This document shows positions 6,301 to 14,002 of a stretch of 64,000 bases of DNA, piece by piece; positions within the stretch are counted from its first letter, which is position 1, and every line of letters begins with the position of its first letter. The notes below the pieces were generated by a model. It saw nothing but the letters and a program-made list of their open reading frames with translations, had not been told where the DNA came from and searched no databases. The translations under genes and the position numbers were made by a program. The DNA comes from Methylomonas fluvii (GTDB lineage: Bacteria; Pseudomonadota; Gammaproteobacteria; Methylococcales; Methylomonadaceae), in assembly GCF_014850975.1 (NCBI RefSeq), contig NZ_JACXST010000001.1, positions 496,001-560,000 on the forward strand. Reading direction: 5' to 3'.

Positions 6301-8012
6301 AGCAAGCCCTGGAAGTGCTGGCGCATTTCGATCCGCTTACCCAATTGCCCAATCGCGCCTTATTCGCCGACCGCTTTGCCCAGGCTATCGCCCACAGCAA
6401 ACGTGCCGAATCGCTATTGGCGGTGTGCTACCTGGATTTAGATGGATTCAAGCAAGTTAACGATAACTTCGGCCACGAAACCGGCGACCAGCTATTGGTG
6501 GAAGTGGCCAAGCGCATCAAGTTAAAGCTGCGCGAAGGCGATACGGTTTGCCGGCTGGGCGGTGACGAATTCGCGTTGCTATTTGAAAACTTGCAATCGG
6601 TGCAGCAATGCGAAGATGCCTTGACCCGCATTCATCAGGCCATGGCCGAACCTTTCGAGTTGGAAAACCGCCATGTGCGGATTGCCGCCAGCAGCGGCGT
6701 GACCATCTATCCGCTGGATTTGGAAGATCCGGATATTCTGTTGCGCCACGCCGACCAAGCCATGTATCAGGCCAAATTGGATGGCCGCAACCGCTATCGG
6801 ATTTACGATCATTTGCCGGGCCAATCGAGCAGCATCAATCATCGCCCCAGCCGTTTGGAGCAAGCCTTGGCCGAAGTCGGCCAGGCGCTGATGGATAGCC
6901 AGTTTTGCATGTATTACCAACCCAGGGTCAATATCAAAACCGGCGAAGTGGTCGGCGCAGAAGCGCTGATCCGTTGGCATCATCCGGAACGCGGCGTGTT
7001 GCCGCCGGCCGAGTTTCTGCCCATAGTCGAAAACACTACCTTGGAAATCGACCTGAGCAACTGGGTGCTACGGCAAGCCTTTAAACAATTGCAGGTTTGG
7101 CACGATCTCGGCTTGAATCTGCAAGTGAGCGTGAACATATCCCCGCGCCATCTGCAATGGCCGGATTTCATCAAAACCCTGGAAACCTTATTAACGGAAT
7201 ACCCGCAAATTCCTTCCTGGCAATTGGAATTGGAAGTATTGGAAAGTAGCGTACTGGAAGACTTGATCTCGGTTGGGGAAACGCTGAAACAATGCTATTA
7301 CGACCTCGGCGTACCCTGTGCGCTCGACGATTTCGGCACCGGTTATTCGTCGCTGGCGCATTTGCGGCATTTGACCATCAACACGGTAAAGATCGATCAG
7401 AGTTTTGTCCGCAATATGATAGACGACCCGGATGACATGGCCATTGTCGAAAGTGTGATTGCGCTGGCCAAAGCCTTTAAACGCGAAGCGGTTGCCGAAG
7501 GCGTGGAAGATATAGAACACGGGATTTTTCTGATCGATTTGGGCTGCAGCATCGCTCAAGGCTGCGCCATCGCCGAGGCCATGCCGGCCGACGCGGTGTT
7601 GGCTTGGGTCAACAGTTATCGCAACCCTACGGCCTGGACTGATTGCGCCGGACTTTCGCTGACGAATTGGCAAAACCAATTGGAATTATTGAAACTTCAG
7701 CAGCAGTATTGGATGCGCCGTCTGGAACAATGTCTGCATCCTCCAACCGGCAGCAGTCCACGCTGGCCTATCCTGAACTCGAAAAAATCGCATCTGGGTA
7801 GATGGCTGGAACGGCTCAAACACGAGCGCGGCATTGATGCACGTTTACTGGAACAACTGGAGCGGGCGCAATCCCGCCAACAAATTCTGGCGGAACAACT
7901 CCAACGTCATCGGCTGGACGGCAGGAGCGGCGACAGCGCAGATTTTAGCCAATTACGTGAAGCCAATCTGCAAATAGTGCAGTTACTGGAGCGTCTAGAA
8001 CCGGCGGCCTAA
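3378..8012 (+). CDS. Multidomain c-di-GMP sensor protein: NMT1-SBP3-TM-PAS(3)-GGDEF-EAL
   Basis: This 1544-residue membrane protein starts with a signal sequence. It then has an NMT1/THI5-like binding domain (about 35-310, beginning LQLKWFHQFQFAGYYAA), a family-3 solute-binding domain (about 330-560, with RVGIDRNFPPYEWLD) and a transmembrane segment near 575-595. Three PAS/PAC units follow, then a GGDEF domain with an intact LGGDEFALL active site and a preceding DPLTQLPNRALF, and an EAL domain with AEALIRWHHP, DDFGTGYSSL and EGVEDIE intact. Both cyclase and phosphodiesterase motifs look competent, so the net activity cannot be predicted. A helical C-terminal tail (about 1430-1544) resembles a degenerate CZB domain. 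The periplasmic part implies sensing of a small nutrient such as a pyrimidine-like or amino-acid ligand (inference). Confidence 0.9.
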   Translation: MKKTIFGLSAVFFLLFCTSSAADTPAANRPLETVTLQLKWFHQFQFAGYYAAIEQGYYAEEGLQVAIRERNPDQDYVEQVASGGAEYGIGDSGIIAQYANGKPIAALAALFQHDALVLFSKQASGIVSPYEMAGKRIMYDVVGENNAQIRALLAEANLNESRYQKIAETFNNADFIADKVDVMSGYITDRPFNFRAAGIKFNIINPQNYGIDFYGDLLFTSRNELQQHPGRAERFLRASLKGWEYALSHPDLLIELIQHKYPSKLNSEQLRYEAEETRKLIMPDNIPLGQIETARLRRVADIYANLKLARPLSDGQLNEFVYGGRQSANLPLNDAERQWLAEHPEIRVGIDRNFPPYEWLDAAGEHQGMIAEHLKLIEQRLGVKFVLIKDKSWQDVLDMAKRGELDMLAGATKTPDREQYLSFTQPYISTPTVIIGDKSGAYINSLPLLTGRRVAIEQGYFVQELLSRDYPGIQLLTAPSVQEALNLLAEGKVDAYVGDAASASYAIRQQGLLNLQIAGQPGYLNETRMAALTSQPQLLSLLEKALASISQAEHDAIINRWMALKVEQGIQVEALLRSAAVALLALLFFVYWVFRLRKEIKARKRSEADLARLYTNMSLGFALHQVIRDDSGKIVDYRYLDINPAFEKMTGIARENWIGKTVKQVLPNTEGAWIASFDGLDTSGEPQHFENCVTDLGRWYAIDSYKASPDRFVVLVQDITERKQTELALKESEERFRISQIYGGVGIWEADLLKNRQFWSEIVTTELGFPHKAQNTWNDFLEVVCPEDRHLILEATREHLERGANYDVEYRIQTPSGEKRWMRSVGQVERDGNGKPVRMRGIVHDVSKRKAAEEKLRLSARVFSDAHEGIIITDLNACIIDVNAAFTDITGYSREEALGQNPSFLKSGRQAPEFYDAMWAIINQTGHWQGEVWNRRKNGDLYAELLTVSALRDDAGNIINYLGLFSDITESKQQQQALEVLAHFDPLTQLPNRALFADRFAQAIAHSKRAESLLAVCYLDLDGFKQVNDNFGHETGDQLLVEVAKRIKLKLREGDTVCRLGGDEFALLFENLQSVQQCEDALTRIHQAMAEPFELENRHVRIAASSGVTIYPLDLEDPDILLRHADQAMYQAKLDGRNRYRIYDHLPGQSSSINHRPSRLEQALAEVGQALMDSQFCMYYQPRVNIKTGEVVGAEALIRWHHPERGVLPPAEFLPIVENTTLEIDLSNWVLRQAFKQLQVWHDLGLNLQVSVNISPRHLQWPDFIKTLETLLTEYPQIPSWQLELEVLESSVLEDLISVGETLKQCYYDLGVPCALDDFGTGYSSLAHLRHLTINTVKIDQSFVRNMIDDPDDMAIVESVIALAKAFKREAVAEGVEDIEHGIFLIDLGCSIAQGCAIAEAMPADAVLAWVNSYRNPTAWTDCAGLSLTNWQNQLELLKLQQQYWMRRLEQCLHPPTGSSPRWPILNSKKSHLGRWLERLKHERGIDARLLEQLERAQSRQQILAEQLQRHRLDGRSGDSADFSQLREANLQIVQLLERLEPAA

Positions 8013-8126
8013 GCCTATTCTGACCAACGCCAGCCGGATTTTGAACCCATTAGAACAGCCACAATGCGCCTGACTAAACAAACCAACTTTACGGACCGCA
8101 TCCACTTTGCTTAAGGGCAAAGCCAC

Positions 8127-8167
8127 AAGCCTCGCGCGAATCGTTTATTGGCCTGCGCGCGAGGCTT
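8127..8167. terminator. Inverted repeat, candidate terminator
   Basis: A perfect 12-bp inverted repeat (AAGCCTCGCGCG at 8127-8138, CGCGCGAGGCTT at 8156-8167) lies 115 bases after the c-di-GMP gene. There is no long T run (TTCAAGTTT follows), so it could be a weak terminator or a palindromic dispersed element. Confidence 0.4.
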
Positions 8168-8173
8168 TCAAGT

Positions 8174-8557
8174 TTGGGGTTGCACCCATTTGGCTTAGTC
8201 AAATAGCTTTTTACCTGGCCCGCAAAGTTATGGTGGTTTGCGATTAAAGCAATTTGCTATCGGCGAGAACCGTTTCCGCTTGCGCGCTTGCCCAGTCAGC
8301 TTTGCGATTGAAGCTATTTGCCTTGCACGAACGGCTAAATGGCTGGCGCGCAAGGTCGAGTAGGTTTAAGTTTGAACCAAATTGGCGTAGCCGAATAGCT
8401 TTTTGCCTCGCGCACAAAGCTATCTTGGCTGGCAATTAAAGCGATTTGCTATGGACGAGAACTGTTTTAGCTTGCGCGCTTGCTTAGGCCAGTTTGCGAT
8501 TGCAGCTATTCGCCTTGCGAGCATGGCTTTTTAGCTTGTCGGCATGCCTTAGAACTC
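8174..8557. repeat. Degenerate tandem array, six 64-bp units in two 192-bp super-units
   Basis: Aligning the non-coding stretch at an offset of 64 bases shows six diverged units, starting near 8174, 8238, 8302, 8366, 8430 and 8494. Their common core is like TGCGATT-AAGC-ATTTGC. Units 2 and 5 (about three quarters identical by eye), 3 and 6, and 1 and 4 match each other better than their neighbours, giving a 192-base higher-order period. No long convincing reading frame is present. Origin and function are unknown. Confidence 0.7.
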
Positions 8558-8681
8558 GGCGCTTAAGGCTAAAAGGTATTCGGGAAGGGCAAAAAGCCTG
8601 GGATTGGTAGCGTTGAAGCTCAGCGGTATAGCCTTGCGGTCGGCCGTCCCCCGCGGCCGGTTGCAAACGCCACCGTCAAGC

Positions 8682-9152
8682 TTAGCCGGCGGCTGGTTCG
8701 ACTTTGCTCTTGGCGCCACGATTGAAACGCACCGCCATCGCCTGCCGCAGCGTTTCCAGCGCCGCGCCTTTGCCGGCGATTTTTAAAGAAGCGTAGGCGT
8801 CCAGGCAAAAGCTGTAAATATCGCTGCCCAGCGCCATGTCGGTATCATCGCCGCGCGCCTGCAAATCCCGCAGCCGATGCAAGCGTGGGCGGAGTTGGTC
8901 GAGGCTGGTCATGTCCGCTTGCGCCTCGGGCATGTTCAGATTGGGCGGGATCGCCTGAGCATTTTGGGCGGCCAGCAGCATGGTCTGCCGACAGAAGGCT
9001 TCGGTCTTATCGCCCATCTTGAGAATATTGCGGCGCTGGTCGGGTGACAGCGACGCGAAGCCGGCGAAATGGGTTTCCAGGGTATTCAAAGCCGCGTCGA
9101 TCTCCGCCAACGCCGCATCACTGAAAGTTAACGATAACAAATTCTGACTCAT
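8682..9152 (-). CDS. Hypothetical helical protein
   Basis: I do not recognise this family. The product is 156 residues, soluble, largely alpha-helical and Ala/Leu-rich, with no signal peptide or membrane segment. Two conserved-looking stretches are PDQRRNILKMGDKTEAFCRQ and SDIYSFCLDAYASLK. Start chosen at ATG 9152, which has AGGAG at 9159-9163. An insertion sequence is joined directly to that ribosome site, so the native promoter has been moved away by 1.5 kb. The IS transposase is read in the same direction and might supply transcription. Confidence 0.65.
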   Translation of the reverse strand: MSQNLLSLTFSDAALAEIDAALNTLETHFAGFASLSPDQRRNILKMGDKTEAFCRQTMLLAAQNAQAIPPNLNMPEAQADMTSLDQLRPRLHRLRDLQARGDDTDMALGSDIYSFCLDAYASLKIAGKGAALETLRQAMAVRFNRGAKSKVEPAAG

Positions 9153-9208
9153 CTTAATCTCCTACATAGTCGTCCCTGAAAAAGCCGATATTTTCCGAAC
9201 ACCAGCAT

Positions 9209-10555
9209 TCAGGCCGACAATAAAAACGGCGCGCTCAATGGCCGCGCCAAAATCCGACATGGCGGTCTCCAAAAATGAGGCAAAAAAATCCTCAACTGCC
9301 TGAGGATCATACGGATATTGTGGCCAGCACCGCATAAGATGGCATGCATGGCATCGCCCAGTTCGCCTTTCAGGTAATTGCGGCCCAGCAATCCGTCGTT
9401 TTTGAGGTGCCCGATGACGGGTTCGATGGCATTGCGGCGTTTGAGGGCGCGTTTGAGTCGCCGGGTGTTTATTCCTCTCTTTTGCCGGGCTTTGTAAATG
9501 GTCACGTTCGGGACCTCGACACCACGGTATCCTAAATCCACAAAAGCTTCTTTTGCGCGTGTACCGCTTAGAATCTCCGCCTGTTCCAGACACGATTCCA
9601 GGGTGTGTCCATCGTAGGGATTACCGGAAAAGCTGCGGGCGCCGAGCACAAAATTACTTTTGTTGGTGACGGTGATGCCCACTTTGACGCCGAATTCATA
9701 CTTCTTGTGGACTTTGCCTTTGGAAATGCATTCGACTTCCGTGGCGTGGAAACTGTACAGCTTGTTTTTATCCTGGGGTTGTTGGTTCAAAATCCGTTGG
9801 GTTTTCTCTAGCGTCTCTTTAAAAGCCAATTTGACTGCATCGGATTGATCCGTCAATTGGCGCTCGATATCTCGGTAAACCCGACCCACCAAAGTTTTGA
9901 GCTGTTTGAGCATTTTGCGTTTGCGCTTCATTTGCTTGGCATGACTGTACCGGTTCGCCATCATCAGCAAATAGGGGGCTTTGCGGTTGTAGTTCTGCCG
10001 TAGTGTAATCTCATGCTGCTCAGCCAGACGTACCATGTGCTGGCGACAGCGTTCATACAATTTTCCATCGGTCGGATACGTGATGGCTTTCTCTTGCACC
10101 GTGCTATCAACCGTCACCGATTCAAAATCCTGTTTCTTCACGGTCTTGCTGGCTACGCCAGCCTGGATCGTCACCGATAACATCCACTCGCAACCTTCTT
10201 CTCCGATCCGTTTTCGCCAATAGGTCAGTGACGTGGGGTGGCAAGGTATCTGGTGTTGGAAATACTCTTCGCCACAAAAATATTGCCAATAGGGATTTTC
10301 AAGCCACTGTGCCACGACCGCTTCGTCCGAGCGTGCAAACGCATGTTTGAGGTAATGAAGCCCGGCAATAAGACGCGTTGGCAACGCCGGAGCGCCTTGG
10401 TTCTCGGTAAAAAATTCACCGAACGCATCATCCAGTACTTTCCAATCGATCAAATTTGCCAGTTGGTAAAGCTCATGCTTCGGATTCAACAGGTCGGCCA
10501 GTGGTGTGTTGAATAGATCGATTTGGCCGCTACTTTCTTGGGATTTTGGCTTCAT
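9209..10555 (-). CDS. IS5-type DDE transposase, copy A
   Basis: The 448-residue transposase has an N-terminal DUF772-like region (LPTRLIAGLHYLKHAFARSD, then NPYWQYFCGEEYFQ). The DDE catalytic core includes VTVDSTVQEKAITYP (first Asp), VDLGYRG (second Asp) and a final AIEPVIGHLKNDG (Glu). It cuts and rejoins the ends of its own element. No Shine-Dalgarno sequence precedes ATG 10555; instead a 13-bp inverted repeat lies just upstream in the leader. A 143-codon frame overlapping the 3' end is a shadow. Confidence 0.92.
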   Translation of the reverse strand: MKPKSQESSGQIDLFNTPLADLLNPKHELYQLANLIDWKVLDDAFGEFFTENQGAPALPTRLIAGLHYLKHAFARSDEAVVAQWLENPYWQYFCGEEYFQHQIPCHPTSLTYWRKRIGEEGCEWMLSVTIQAGVASKTVKKQDFESVTVDSTVQEKAITYPTDGKLYERCRQHMVRLAEQHEITLRQNYNRKAPYLLMMANRYSHAKQMKRKRKMLKQLKTLVGRVYRDIERQLTDQSDAVKLAFKETLEKTQRILNQQPQDKNKLYSFHATEVECISKGKVHKKYEFGVKVGITVTNKSNFVLGARSFSGNPYDGHTLESCLEQAEILSGTRAKEAFVDLGYRGVEVPNVTIYKARQKRGINTRRLKRALKRRNAIEPVIGHLKNDGLLGRNYLKGELGDAMHAILCGAGHNIRMILRQLRIFLPHFWRPPCRILARPLSAPFLLSA

Positions 10556-10568
10556 TTTCGATAAAAAT

Positions 10569-10607
10569 TTGCAAGAAATTAATATCTATTTTACTAATTT
10601 CTTGCAA
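10569..10607 (-). promoter_or_regulatory. Perfect inverted repeat in transposase leader, copy A
   Basis: TTGCAAGAAATTA (10569-10581) and TAATTTCTTGCAA (10595-10607) are perfect 13-bp arms with a 13-base loop. They end 13 bases before the transposase ATG on the minus strand. A leader hairpin of this kind could limit translation from transcripts entering from outside, or bind a regulator. The same hairpin is at 37533-37571 in copy B. Confidence 0.5.
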
Positions 10608-10685
10608 TTATTGCCCGTCTTTTTCTTCAATTATTTATTGTGTTTCAATGCTTTAGCCGTGAATTTGTGGCTTTTCAGGGGCGAC

Positions 10686-11130
10686 TACATAGTTGCCGAA
10701 TACGCGAACCAGCAGCACCGGTCCGCAGAGAAAAAGCGTAGGCTATTTTTCTAAAAAGGAGTGATTTTATATGTTAGAGATGGGCGTTTTTTTTGGTAAG
10801 GTGCGTAGCCTGGATGAAGCGAAGCGGAATCCGGGATTGCGGCTCAAATTTCCATGGATTACGCTACTCCTGTCTGATCGGCTACCCTCAGAGGGGAAAG
10901 CATAAAGCGGCCATAAGCACCGGACGAATTCAAGAGAGCTAATCGCAAAGGCCTACAAAGGCAAGCGTAGGGTGTGGTGAGTTTACGAACCGCACCATTC
11001 GCGAACGATGCGCTTCACACTGTTCAGCACATCCTACGGTCTCGGTATCATTCAAGCATTGAGTTAAGTCTAGGGTACGCCTAGCGTAATCATGTTGATA
11101 AACGCCAGAAGGTACGCGACGCGTACCCTT
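10686..11130. repeat. Gene-free stretch with three dispersed palindromic repeats
   Basis: No gene is supported between the IS5-type and IS110-type elements. Three repeat types follow each other. One at 10805-10884 begins GTAGCCTGGATGAAGCGAAG, a motif seen in many proteobacterial intergenic repeats. One at 10966-11038 begins CGTAGGGTGTGG and ends ATCCTACG; a second copy lies at the ISAs1 element near 49257-49327. One at 11072-11129 is flanked by AGGGTACGC and GCGTACCCT. These are the kinds of REP-like sequence that IS110 elements often target. Confidence 0.6.
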
Positions 11131-11159
11131 GTATCTTACTTCTCGCCATGGTTAGCTAC

Positions 11160-11330
11160 CTTGGCACTGAGACAGAAAGAGCTTGTGCGTACCCTTAAGG
11201 TTCGACCTTGGCATGTAGATTAAGCCTTCTGTCTCACTTCTGACGCCAACGAAGACACTGAACGGTAGCCAAGGGCAATGACCCTGCATGCACAAGGCAA
11301 GTGGGCTCAGTTGGTTTATTTTGTTTCTTC
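11160..11330 (+). ncRNA. Candidate IS110 bridge RNA
   Basis: The leader upstream of the recombinase folds into a long stem: TGAGACAGAA plus GCTT (11168-11184) pairs with AAGCCTTCTGTCTCA (11222-11236). Inside is a short hairpin AAGGTTCGACCTT (11197-11209), and the loop strand holds GCGTACCCTT (11187-11196), identical to 11121-11130 at the presumed insertion site. A second structured part follows (GGGCAATGACCC near 11272 and ACTGA/TCAGT arms). Bridge RNAs of IS110 elements have this two-loop plan, with guides matching target and donor. Assignment is inference from structure and position. Confidence 0.5.
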
Positions 11331-11345
11331 ACACTGAGTTGCCTT

Positions 11346-12332
11346 ATGTTTTTTATCGGTATCGATGTCTCTAAAGCCAAGCTCGACTGTAGTCTGTTGC
11401 TGGACACCTGCATCAATAAACGTCGCGCCAAATCCGTTGCCAATTCCAAAACGGGCTTCGACGATCTGCTGACTTGGTGCGCCAAACAACGCGTGTGTCC
11501 ACAAGAATTGCATGCCATTCTCGAAGGCACGGGCGTTTACCACGAGCAGGCCGCCTTAGCCTTAGCGGATGCAGGGGTAACGGTGTCTATCGTGAACCCG
11601 GCACAGGTCAAGGATTTTGGCCGCAGCCTGGGTGTGCGCACCAAAACCGACGGCGTTGATAGCCTGGTGTTGGCCCGTTACGGCGCGTTGTTGAATCCCA
11701 AGCCTTGGACACCTCCAACCCCAGAAGCTCGCACGTTGCAAGCCCTGCTATCCCGCCGCGAAGCGATTGCCCAGGATTTGCAACGTGAGCGCAACCGCCT
11801 CGAAAAAGCCCAGGCCACCGATACCCCGGCACTGATTCACCAGTCCTTGCTCGACTCTATTACCTTCCTGGAAGCACAACTCGCTAAACTCCAGATCGAC
11901 ATCGACGACCATATCGATCAGTACCCTGAACTGAAAGCGGACCGGATGCTGTTAATCAGTATTCCCGGCGTCGGTCCCCAGGTTAGCAATCACTTGTTAG
12001 CGGTCATGCACAATCATCGCTTTCAATCCGCCGAACAACTGGCCGCTTACCTGGGGTTGGTGCCCGTGGAGCGACAGTCCGGTTCGTCGATTCAAGGGCG
12101 ACCCAGACTATCCAAAGCCGGGCCGGCCCGTATGCGGGCCATCCTCTATATGGCTGCCGTAGTCGGCGTTCAATACAATCCGCACCTCAAAGCACTCTAT
12201 TTGCGCTTGCAAGCACGCGGTAAATCAAAAATGTCGGCTCTCGGTGGCGCCATGCGCAAACTCGTGCATTTGTGCTTTGGCGTCTTGAAAACTCGTGAGC
12301 CTTACCGGGTCGATTACGCTCTCCACAGTTGA
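11346..12332 (+). CDS. IS110-family transposase (DEDD recombinase)
   Basis: From ATG 11346 the 328-residue protein starts with the DEDD signature FFIGIDVSKAKLDCSLL. It continues with EGTGVYHEQAALALADAG, NPAQVKDFGRSLG and RTKTDGVDSLVLARY of the RuvC-like N-terminal domain. A coiled-coil linker is followed by the C-terminal Transposase_20 domain (ISIPGVGPQVSNHLL, AAYLGLVPVERQSGSS, with the serine nucleophile region). An upstream in-frame start at 11301 would add 15 hydrophobic residues not expected in the family. It inserts the element with guidance from its own RNA, according to recent work on this family. Confidence 0.92.
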   Translation: MFFIGIDVSKAKLDCSLLLDTCINKRRAKSVANSKTGFDDLLTWCAKQRVCPQELHAILEGTGVYHEQAALALADAGVTVSIVNPAQVKDFGRSLGVRTKTDGVDSLVLARYGALLNPKPWTPPTPEARTLQALLSRREAIAQDLQRERNRLEKAQATDTPALIHQSLLDSITFLEAQLAKLQIDIDDHIDQYPELKADRMLLISIPGVGPQVSNHLLAVMHNHRFQSAEQLAAYLGLVPVERQSGSSIQGRPRLSKAGPARMRAILYMAAVVGVQYNPHLKALYLRLQARGKSKMSALGGAMRKLVHLCFGVLKTREPYRVDYALHS

Positions 12333-12445
12333 CTTTTAAGACGGTATCTACCGGGCTGCCTATCGGGCGGATTTCTGAATGACCGTGATGCCGGAACTTA
12401 ATCGATTAACGCGGCATTTAGAGGCTTATCCGTTGAAATGATTTG

Positions 12446-13948
12446 TTAAAGACTGCATGAACTCTCTTCAATCCGAACGTTATGTATTTTCTCAATTAGC
12501 AGATCTGTAAACTGGTTAAGTTGACTGTCGCGATCTTGGCTGGGATCAAAAGTGAACCCACCAGTGCCGTTTGTTAGATCAAACATTCCTGGCGGGCAGT
12601 CGGAAAACCACAGAGGAATTACGCAGTTTTCTCCAAATCTTTCTTTGAAATTGTCAGCTTCGAATTTACACCAAACTCTCGATGGATAGTTCTTGCTGAG
12701 TATAGCGACGATAAATCTCGATTCCGACCTGTATATAGGTGCAAGATACTCCTCTACGTTTTGAGAAAGAATTCTTGCTTGTTCATTATTGTCATAAAAT
12801 ACAGATATTTCATTATCAGACAATTTTTGTTGAATGTAGTCGGCAATATTTCGCTCTAATCCAGTAAAAGATAGTGCGTAGTCATACTCTGAAGAAAATT
12901 CAACTGTATGAAAGCCAATTTTTTTAGCAACTTTAGACCATGGTAGATTTTTAATATAGAAAAAGTACTTTGGGTCTTCGATGGAAAGCTCGGTAGTCTC
13001 GTTGTTGTAATATATAACCTCAGAGTAACTCTCATTTCCTTCATAATGTTCTTTGAGATGACCTTTAGTCAGAATCTGACCAACGCTATTTCTATGATTT
13101 GGTTGTTCAATAAGAGTTGATTCAATATTTATACTCATGCTCTCAGACTTAGAAAGCCAATATAGAACATGAAGGTATGGAGCCCGACTTCCTTTCTTTA
13201 CTCTCTGACCTTTACAGAAGCGAGTAGTTAACTGTGAAAAACTAGTTGATAAGTCATCAAGGATGAACTCCTTTAATGCCTCAAAGCTTACAGTTGTAGG
13301 GGTGAGAATTTCACATTCTTCCAAAATATTGCTTTTCAAGCAAGCGTGATGAGCAAGCATCTGTGCGAGATGGAAGCTACCCTGCGATCCTAAAATTATT
13401 TCCGATTTAACATTCAGCTCTACCTTTAGACATTGCTCTCCCTTTTCCAAGAGCTCTTCCAGTTTTTCTTCTGAATTTGATTCAAACTTTATTATGTCTA
13501 TTCGGTTTCTTAGATCTGCTGAATACTGGAACAAAGAATGGCCAGTTTTATTGATTCCAACAAGTACTAGCTTTGAATTTTCATTTTCTTCATCAGCAAG
13601 AATTTTTAGTAGATCAGAAAGTTTCTGTTTCAAAGGTTCTTCGAGCTTATGAAAGTCATCAATTATAACTGTTCCAAAATTTTCGTTATCGATTAGCGCC
13701 TCTATGACTGGTTTGTCAAGACGTTTCCTTCCAGATAGAACTCGAATATTGCTATTATCCCCCAGTCGATCAAGGACTTTTAGCACACAAGTTGTTTTTC
13801 CTATACCCGACGGCCCTTCAACTACGAGCCCTCTACCTTTAGAACGTAGCGCAACGAAAAGCCGAGTATATTCTGCTGGTTCAACGAAGGTGAACTCAGG
13901 CACACCTGACAGTTTAAAAACGTCTTCTAGATTCTTCTTTTCTGTCAT
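12446..13948 (-). CDS. AAA ATPase with C-terminal TIR domain, candidate defence protein
   Basis: The 500-residue protein combines a P-loop ATPase and a TIR domain. Walker A GPSGIGKT is at residues 45-52 and Walker B VIIDDFH near 94-100; the ATPase and a helical linker extend to about 350. The TIR domain runs from about 353 (EYDYALSFTGLERNIADYI). Its WCKFEADNF motif places a glutamate near residue 430 at the position used as catalytic residue by NAD-cleaving TIR enzymes. This order suggests an immune-type sensor that activates NAD depletion (inference). The gene is clearly more AT-rich than the housekeeping genes, is preceded by AGGGA, stands alone, and lies between an IS110 element and palindromic repeats, all signs of transfer. 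Confidence 0.8.
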   Translation of the reverse strand: MTEKKNLEDVFKLSGVPEFTFVEPAEYTRLFVALRSKGRGLVVEGPSGIGKTTCVLKVLDRLGDNSNIRVLSGRKRLDKPVIEALIDNENFGTVIIDDFHKLEEPLKQKLSDLLKILADEENENSKLVLVGINKTGHSLFQYSADLRNRIDIIKFESNSEEKLEELLEKGEQCLKVELNVKSEIILGSQGSFHLAQMLAHHACLKSNILEECEILTPTTVSFEALKEFILDDLSTSFSQLTTRFCKGQRVKKGSRAPYLHVLYWLSKSESMSINIESTLIEQPNHRNSVGQILTKGHLKEHYEGNESYSEVIYYNNETTELSIEDPKYFFYIKNLPWSKVAKKIGFHTVEFSSEYDYALSFTGLERNIADYIQQKLSDNEISVFYDNNEQARILSQNVEEYLAPIYRSESRFIVAILSKNYPSRVWCKFEADNFKERFGENCVIPLWFSDCPPGMFDLTNGTGGFTFDPSQDRDSQLNQFTDLLIEKIHNVRIEESSCSL

Positions 13949-14002
13949 CGTGATCCCTAAACTTATGTTTCGATATATTTTAACTAGTTATTATCTAGGA
14001 CC

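What the first reader, a model, noticed from the sequence alone, without database searches (positions are those of the whole stretch)
11121..11236. IS110 bridge-RNA candidate whose loop repeats the flanking target sequence
A strong stem (11168-11184 with 11222-11236) encloses a loop that contains GCGTACCCTT. The same ten bases end the palindromic repeat immediately upstream (11121-11130), where the element's left end is expected. A guide loop identical to the adjoining target half is what the bridge-RNA model predicts, so the insertion site appears to be readable from the sequence.
Basis: partly seen in the sequence, partly recalled or inferred. Interest (0 to 1): 0.72.

Follow-up and report, generated by a model that had tools for sequence, protein, structure and literature searches.

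The report
Guide RNA of REP-targeting IS110 element
A small jumping gene, in a bacterium from a family of methane-eaters, encodes what looks like a guide RNA whose two short guides match the repeated DNA hairpin it sits in; this is a new example of the recently described bridge-RNA system, and it may read the same four-letter mark that another mobile-DNA enzyme cuts.

Summary
An IS110-group element (core dinucleotides 11128-11129 and 12348-12349; recombinase 11346-12332) sits at the edge of a GGTACGC-GAC-GCGTACC hairpin. Its left end encodes an RNA with the IS621 bridge-RNA layout. The left target guide 11187-11195 (GCGTACC-CT) equals the left flank. The second genomic copy and one in another species lie at the same kind of site. 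Across relatives guide and flank change together: 146 of 175 letters match over 25 distinct left guides, against 72 (sd 7) with shuffled flanks, in the predicted register only. The genome holds 25 exact targets, 24 at such hairpins. It is a new member of a known kind. Possibly new: CTAC is the complement of GTAG, the REP tag that RAYT enzymes cut. Of elements with distinct guides, 14 of 18 with right guide GTAG abut a hairpin, 0 of 6 with other right guides do; kinship is not corrected for, so this is a lead. No experiment was possible.

The parts
11111..11127 (+). REP hairpin (GGTACGC GAC GCGTACC) forming the left flank; its 3' arm is the left target
   Evidence: 27 exact copies of the palindrome in the genome
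11074..11090 (+). degenerate partner hairpin (GGTACGC CTA GCGTAAT) of the same paired repeat
   Evidence: read; paired layout as
11128..11129 (+). left core dinucleotide CT
   Evidence: comparison of three copies and relatives
11130..11345 (+). left non-coding end (LE), 216 nt
11132..11137 (+). -10 box TATCTT of the predicted circle-junction promoter; the -35 is in the right end
11144..11315 (+). bridge RNA; both ends are inferred, not measured
   Evidence: length by analogy with the 177-nt IS621 RNA
11146..11164 (+). 5' stem-loop of the bridge RNA
11169..11185 (+). 5' arm of target-binding-loop stem (pairs with 11221-11235)
11187..11195 (+). left target guide GCGTACC-CT
11197..11209 (+). inner stem-loop AAGG-TTCGA-CCTT of the target loop
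11215..11218 (+). right target guide GTAG; with 11212-11214 (CAT) it also matches CTACATG at copy 2
11219..11220 (+). AT at the place of the IS621 handshake guide
11221..11235 (+). 3' arm of target-binding-loop stem
11262..11269 (+). left donor guide ACGGTAGC (donor ACGGTATC)
   Evidence: position by analogy with IS621
11288..11296 (+). right donor guide ATGCACAAG, same spacing as IS621 A157-U158/C162-G165; handshake place 11297-11298 (GC)
11346..12332 (+). IS110-family DEDD/serine recombinase, 328 aa
12329..12334 (+). -35 box TTGACT of the promoter predicted on the excised circle (17-nt spacer)
12333..12347 (+). right non-coding end (RE), ending ACGGTAT
12348..12349 (+). right core dinucleotide CT; right flank starts at 12350 (AC, so CTAC)

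Best explanation
This is a complete IS110-group insertion sequence of the IS621 kind. On excision its right and left ends join (ACGGTAT-CT-TGTATC); the joint places TTGACT 17 nt from TATCTT and should drive the left-end RNA. That RNA binds the recombinase. Its donor loop pairs with the joint, and its target loop pairs with GCGTACC-CT (bottom strand, left guide) and CTAC (top strand, right guide), so the circle recombines at CT at the edge of a GTAG-tagged REP hairpin. Shown here: element ends, guide-flank agreement across relatives, consensus structure, target census. Inferred from IS621: RNA expression, binding to the recombinase, strand exchange. Also inferred: because CTAC is the complement of the GTAG tag, each insertion splits the tag that RAYT enzymes cut and should disable that end of the REP for RAYT.
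For: Recombinase domains PF01548 and PF02371; match to the IS621 (8wt6, E 5.9e-59) and ISCro4 (9t56, E 2e-62) chains. Ends fixed by three copies. Left guide 146 of 175 letters over 25 distinct guides, 0 of 100,000 permutations as good; right guide 73 of 100 letters over 20 distinct guides against 38.4 (sd 5.1), 0 of 100,000; beyond the shared AC, 23 of 39 letters over 13 guides against 9.9, 1 of 100,000. Elements with a different right guide match a different right flank, 5 of 5 letters for L049, L056 and L059. IS621-like consensus fold, 17 of 39 pairs with double changes. A covariance model from 24 sequences finds the RNA in 5 of 5 members of the 50-54% identity group, which were not in the model, E 1e-17 to 5e-13. 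Junction promoter: -35 with at least 4 of 6 letters at 17 nt in 38 of 42 elements, against 1 of 42 at the same place in the inserted state. 25 exact targets in the genome, reversed-pattern control 1; 24 of 25 at the hairpin, 22 exact and 2 with one mismatch.
Against: Several relatives match poorly: left guide L115 2 of 7, L040 3 of 7, L039 3 of 7 (it abuts another copy), L055 and L056 4 of 7; right guide L050 1 of 5. In the window copy the right guide beyond GTAG matches 1 of 3 further letters. The model finds only 1 of the 7 loci of the 44% identity group given to it (7 of 15 held), though their guides read well by eye. The single sequence does not fold better than most shuffles by a clear margin. 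Donor guides hardly vary, so donor pairing rests on three donor types. No orthologous empty locus was found. No promoter-like site was found at the inserted left end, and there are no expression or activity data.
Confidence: 0.95

Rival explanations
1. The recombinase protein alone recognises the hairpin, and the loop copies the flank by chance or by an old capture of REP sequence.
For: The target is a palindrome, a shape proteins often bind; the left guide equals one hairpin arm.
Against: Across relatives loop and flank change together in one register only, on both sides, including elements whose flank shows no hairpin at my threshold (L056, L059; L049 is borderline, p 0.038).
Confidence: 0.03
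2. The left-end structure is chiefly a leader that controls recombinase translation, as reported for the sRNAs and 5'-UTR of ISPpu9.
For: The RNA region lies directly upstream of the gene; ISPpu9, also REP-inserted, is reported to have such control (title and start of abstract of PMC8450116, search listing).
Against: It does not explain loop-flank agreement or the IS621-like guide spacing. It could act in addition.
Confidence: 0.05
3. The CTAC/GTAG agreement with REP tags only reflects that REP repeats are abundant, safe landing sites and that CT is a fixed core; the RAYT tag has no special role. (This rivals the GTAG reading, not the bridge-RNA reading.)
For: Only two letters beyond the core are shared. 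The contrast of 14 of 18 against 0 of 6 rests on a label that changes three times on the best tree (well-supported branches force only one change), and independent pairs are too few for a test. With a threshold of p 0.05 it becomes 14 of 18 against 1 of 6 (my recount).
Against: Three separate recombinase groups (the window's own, the 50-54% and the 44% group) have CTAC targets beside hairpins of different sequence, and the IS621 target and REP sequences quoted in PMC11208160 show the same layout (my reading).
Confidence: 0.45

Closest known systems
IS621 of Escherichia coli (IS110 group; bridge RNA, Durrant 2024 PMC11208160; structure, Hiraizumi 2024 PMC11208158)
   Same: DEDD/serine recombinase, bridge RNA in the left end, CT core, 11-base target with right part CTAC (natural target ATCAGGC-CT-AC), split right donor guide and handshake places, insertion in REP repeats (donor letters of IS621 partly recalled).
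   Different: Other host lineage; left guide GCGTACC; other REP family; one copy carries a partial second RNA unit.
ISCro4 (PDB 9t56)
   Same: Best sequence match among solved structures; deposited as ISCro4 transposase.
   Different: Its guides and targets were not examined here.
ISPa11, ISPpu9, ISPpu10 (REP-inserted elements listed as IS110 family in PMC1525189)
   Same: IS110-family elements found in REP sequences.
   Different: ISPa11 is treated as IS1111-type with the RNA downstream of the gene (PMC11187229, passages); here it is upstream.
GTAG-tagged REPs and RAYTs (PMC3733652, PMC2817692, PMC6006769, passages)
   Same: The target is a repeated hairpin with a GTAG tag at one foot, mostly in head-to-head pairs; the genome has Y1 transposase matches.
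   Different: PMC3733652 holds no mention of IS110 or of methylo- names in its main text. Which RAYT serves this REP family was not established.

Membership tests
IS110 family, IS110 group | DEDD (RuvC-like) domain plus C-terminal serine domain | tested here: met
   PF01548 81.5 bits and PF02371 87.2 bits, both above cut-off; catalytic D, E, D, D, S places (recalled) align by eye with the ISCro4 chain
IS110 family, IS110 group | Left end longer than right end, RNA upstream of the gene | tested here: met
   216 nt against 15 nt; RNA model hit at 11130-11316 (the window was in the model)
IS110 family, IS110 group | Insertion at a short core without longer target duplication | tested here: met
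   Two own copies and one in G003 share CT at both ends and differ in the sequence beyond the shared target; no orthologous empty locus found
Bridge-RNA (IS621-type) system | 5' stem-loop plus two stem-loops with internal loops | tested here: met
   Consensus fold of 24 sequences; model finds 5 of 5 loci of the 50-54% group, but 1 of the 7 loci given of the 44% group
Bridge-RNA (IS621-type) system | Target loop complementary to both strands of the target | tested here: met
   Left and right guide permutation tests
Bridge-RNA (IS621-type) system | Donor loop complementary to the joined ends | tested here: inconclusive
   Left donor guide matches 6 or 7 of 7 letters in 53 of 55 rows (near-copies and duplicate loci included) and follows three donor types; too little variation for a covariation test
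Bridge-RNA (IS621-type) system | Promoter assembled on the excised circle | tested here: met
   By sequence only: 38 of 42 junctions have a -35 with at least 4 of 6 letters at 17 nt
Bridge-RNA (IS621-type) system | RNA is expressed, binds the recombinase, directs recombination | not testable with these tools
   Needs RNA-seq and a recombination assay
GTAG-tagged REP repeat (the target) | Repeated hairpin with GTAG at one foot | tested here: met
   27 exact palindromes in the genome; palindrome in 27 of 37 genomes of the genus. Comparing by hand: 22 of the 27 have an intact CTAC foot, 2 are split by the element, 3 lack it
GTAG-tagged REP repeat (the target) | Mobilised by a RAYT of the host | tested here: inconclusive
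   Three Y1_Tnp matches in the genome, one a fragment; only one of their three loci (L117) has a GTAG-tagged copy nearby

The most novel reading that the evidence does not exclude
The IS110 group is largely a set of guided parasites of the RAYT/REP system: the right guide is held at GTAG because REP families keep that tag for RAYT cleavage, while the left guide drifts to follow the stem of whichever REP family the host has. Each insertion splits the tag and so disarms that REP end. Retargeting away from REPs then needs a change of the right guide, as seen in six elements here.
Probability: 0.4. Interest if true: 0.6.

Novelty: new member of a known kind. Interest (0 to 1): 0.4.

Why it matters
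It is a sequence-only confirmation of the bridge-RNA model in a little-studied lineage, with two guides that can be read off and tested and 25 ready-made target sites. The GTAG link, if it holds in a wider survey, would help explain why IS110 elements so often sit in REP repeats: two unrelated mobile systems would be reading the same four bases, one by RNA guide and one by protein.

Tried and rejected
Rfam has no match in 8000-14000 at curated cut-offs. No relative was found in viral contigs by the protein-pattern scan. Plasmid relatives are only about 50% identical and were not used. A first parser for the guides failed on most rows and was corrected; its anchor words were chosen by eye from the alignment. 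For nine rows of the 44% group (L029, L032-L039) the corrected parser misread the right guide, and I set it by hand to the letters found. The first tree was distorted by frameshifted genes and replaced. The first promoter script was off by one base and was rerun. The search for an orthologous empty locus failed (lists capped): matches across the junction were copies of the repeat family.

Rows dropped: L008, L025, L061, L065 and L066 (fragments or distant) were never used in the guide tests; nine loci (L099-L103, L105, L106, L109, L110) as duplicates of loci already held, judged by eye from matching flanks; L042, L062 and L114 lack a readable left end; L045b, L046 and L047 have masked flanks; L048 was left out of the hairpin test for N in its flank. 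One search did not apply the duplicate filter. One search used one row per distinct guide: 25 of 45 usable rows on the left, 20 rows on the right. The hairpin threshold (p 0.02) was my choice.

Rejected as the main account: protein-only recognition and a translation-control leader (see rivals). For the duplicated left end in copy 2, pure slippage is possible (five shared bases ACCCT) but I think it less likely, since the unit starts exactly at the element's boundary.

Full report
Observation. Its closest named relatives by this gene include Methylobacter and Methylomicrobium, and what looks like the same gene copy as one of the Methylobacter loci turns up in a genome that the genome search lists as of the same family. 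The gene at 11346-12332 is an IS110-family recombinase, matching the IS621 and ISCro4 chains in the PDB.

Element ends. A second, 100% identical gene copy lies on C2, and a 92% one in genome G003 of the same genus. Comparing copies, the left boundary is GCGTACC-CT|TGTATCTT and the right is GACGGTAT-CT|AC. The element runs from the core at 11128-11129 to the core at 12348-12349, 1220 bases core to core. Removing it leaves GCGTACC-CT-AC.

Guides. In the RNA strand the target loop has GCGTACC-CT (11187-11195) on its 5' side and GTAG (11215-11218) on its 3' side. By the IS621 scheme (PMC11208160, sections 6 and 12 and passages; [quoted passage not shown] The window copy matches 7 of 7 left letters plus the core, and CTAC on the right; of three further right letters it matches one. 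Copy 2 matches all three.

Test across relatives. Relatives came from GTDB contigs (27 loci), the genus (37 genomes) and the order (311 genomes, 18 with a match at E 1e-95 or better). A rule that does not look at the flank picked the guides. With one row per distinct left guide (25), 146 of 175 letters match the own flank; shuffled flanks give 72.3 (sd 6.6), never above 103 in 100,000. The 18 rows outside the 44% and 50-54% groups alone give 105 matches of 126 against 50.3. Offsets of 1 to 4 bases give at most 2.64 of 7, the true register 5.84. The right guide gives 73 of 100 letters over 20 rows against 38.4 (sd 5.1); with the common AC removed, 23 of 39 over 13 rows against 9.9. Poor matches are L115 (2 of 7), L040 and L039 (3 of 7), L055 and L056 (4 of 7) on the left, and L050 (1 of 5) on the right.

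Structure. RNAalifold on 24 left ends gives a 5' stem-loop, a target-loop stem with inner stem-loop, and a donor-loop stem with inner stem-loop; 17 of 39 pairs have double changes, mostly in the 5' stem-loop and the target-loop stem. The donor loop carries ACGGTAGC and ATGCACAAG, the latter with the spacing reported for IS621. The left donor guide follows three donor types (ACGGTAT, ATGGTAT, ACAGTAT). The covariance model finds 5 of 5 loci of the 50-54% group and 1 of the 7 loci given of the 44% group (15 held). One sequence alone does not fold remarkably (22 of 200 shuffles as stable).

Promoter. No promoter-like site lies in 11000-11400. On the joined circle TTGACT lies 17 nt from TATCTT; 38 of 42 elements have a -35 of at least 4 of 6 letters there, against 1 of 42 in the inserted state. 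Durrant et al. report that excision of IS621 reconstitutes a promoter (passages).

Target. The palindrome occurs 27 times in the genome (control 0) and in 27 of 37 genomes of the genus. The full target GCGTACCCTAC occurs 25 times (reversed-pattern control 1). Of these, 24 lie at the hairpin (22 exact, 2 with one mismatch; L088 not), and 18 of 25 have a second hairpin with GTAGGGTACGC facing the other way within 75 bases. Since CTAC is part of that pattern, the tag is better counted from the palindromes: of 27, 22 have an intact CTAC foot, 2 are split by the element and 3 lack it (searches compared by hand). These are GTAG-tagged REPs in paired arrays as described in PMC3733652 (abstract and passages), which states that an E. 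coli RAYT cleaves the GTAG motif. The core CT of the IS lies inside the complement of that tag. Some REP families have other tags, such as GTGG (PMC2817692 table; PMC6006769).

GTAG and hairpins. Among distinct guides, 14 of 18 with right guide GTAG lie directly against a hairpin (each p 0.02 or less against shuffles of its own flank), and 0 of 6 with another right guide do (hypergeometric 0.0016). At p 0.05 it is 14 of 18 against 1 of 6. Over all 44 rows tested it is 24 of 38 against 0 of 6. In a few rows the stem found is not a compact hairpin (for the window copy the script preferred a distant partner; the compact 7-pair hairpin is listed). The label needs three changes on the best recombinase tree, supported branches force only one, and independent pairs are too few for a test, so this is a lead.

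In print. Searches for bridge RNA with RAYT terms and for REP, GTAG, RAYT and IS621 list no paper that combines bridge RNA with RAYT. Two papers hold both IS110 and GTAG. In the passages seen, PMC2817692 says that some ISs use REPs as targets (its IS621 mention is a reference), and PMC6006769 compares RAYT genes with the unrelated IS110; neither passage ties the IS target to the tag. I did not read the original IS621 paper (Choi 2003), and subscription papers are largely missing from the library, so novelty of the link is not established.

Copy 2. The first 155 bases of the left end (from 11131) are duplicated in tandem (100% identical), and the joint lies at ACC-CT|TGTATC. The internal site used, AATGACC-CT-GCATG, is fourth of 136 CT sites in the element for match to the guides (7 of 12, tied with the third; the first is the guide itself). 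Insertion into itself followed by homologous deletion would give this; slippage between two ACCCT repeats is the alternative.

Verdict. New member of a known kind, well supported by sequence; mechanism steps beyond complementarity are inferred from IS621.

Noticed in passing
L002 about 1260-1630 (second genomic copy, G000:C2:1256512-1256882): The left end is partly duplicated (155 nt), giving a truncated extra bridge-RNA unit; the joint is at the core dinucleotide, suggesting a self-insertion event.
   Followed up: partly
L039 and L051, left flank: The element abuts the right end of another copy (tandem) in L039, and L051 has a right-end relic of another copy nearby.
   Followed up: no
window 11005-11041: A different GTAG-type hairpin repeat (reverse complement GTAG-GATGTGC...GCGCATC) lies just upstream; about 30 of its bases recur in many genomes of the genus in a capped list.
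   Followed up: no
window 12446-13948, minus strand: A protein with AAA-type ATPase and TIR domains; matches candidate defence models PDC-S59 (2e-19) and PDC-S66 (4e-7).
   Followed up: no
window 9209-10555, minus strand: A DDE transposase with DUF772, so two unrelated transposase genes are close together.
   Followed up: no
G000:C2:1257296-1257595 (L117): A Y1 (RAYT-like) transposase gene lies about 340 bases from the paired REP that holds copy 2.
   Followed up: partly
L007 (G000:C1:674055) and L026-L039: A second IS110 lineage (about 44% identity) with right end ACAGTAT, left guides such as ATCGGAC and ATCGGAG and, in many copies, hairpin targets around TCCGATTACGC..GCTAATCGGA; ten copies in genome G024.
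   Followed up: partly
L045 (Candidatus Ferrigenium straubiae): Two copies of a relative lie in opposite orientation within 5 kb.
   Followed up: no
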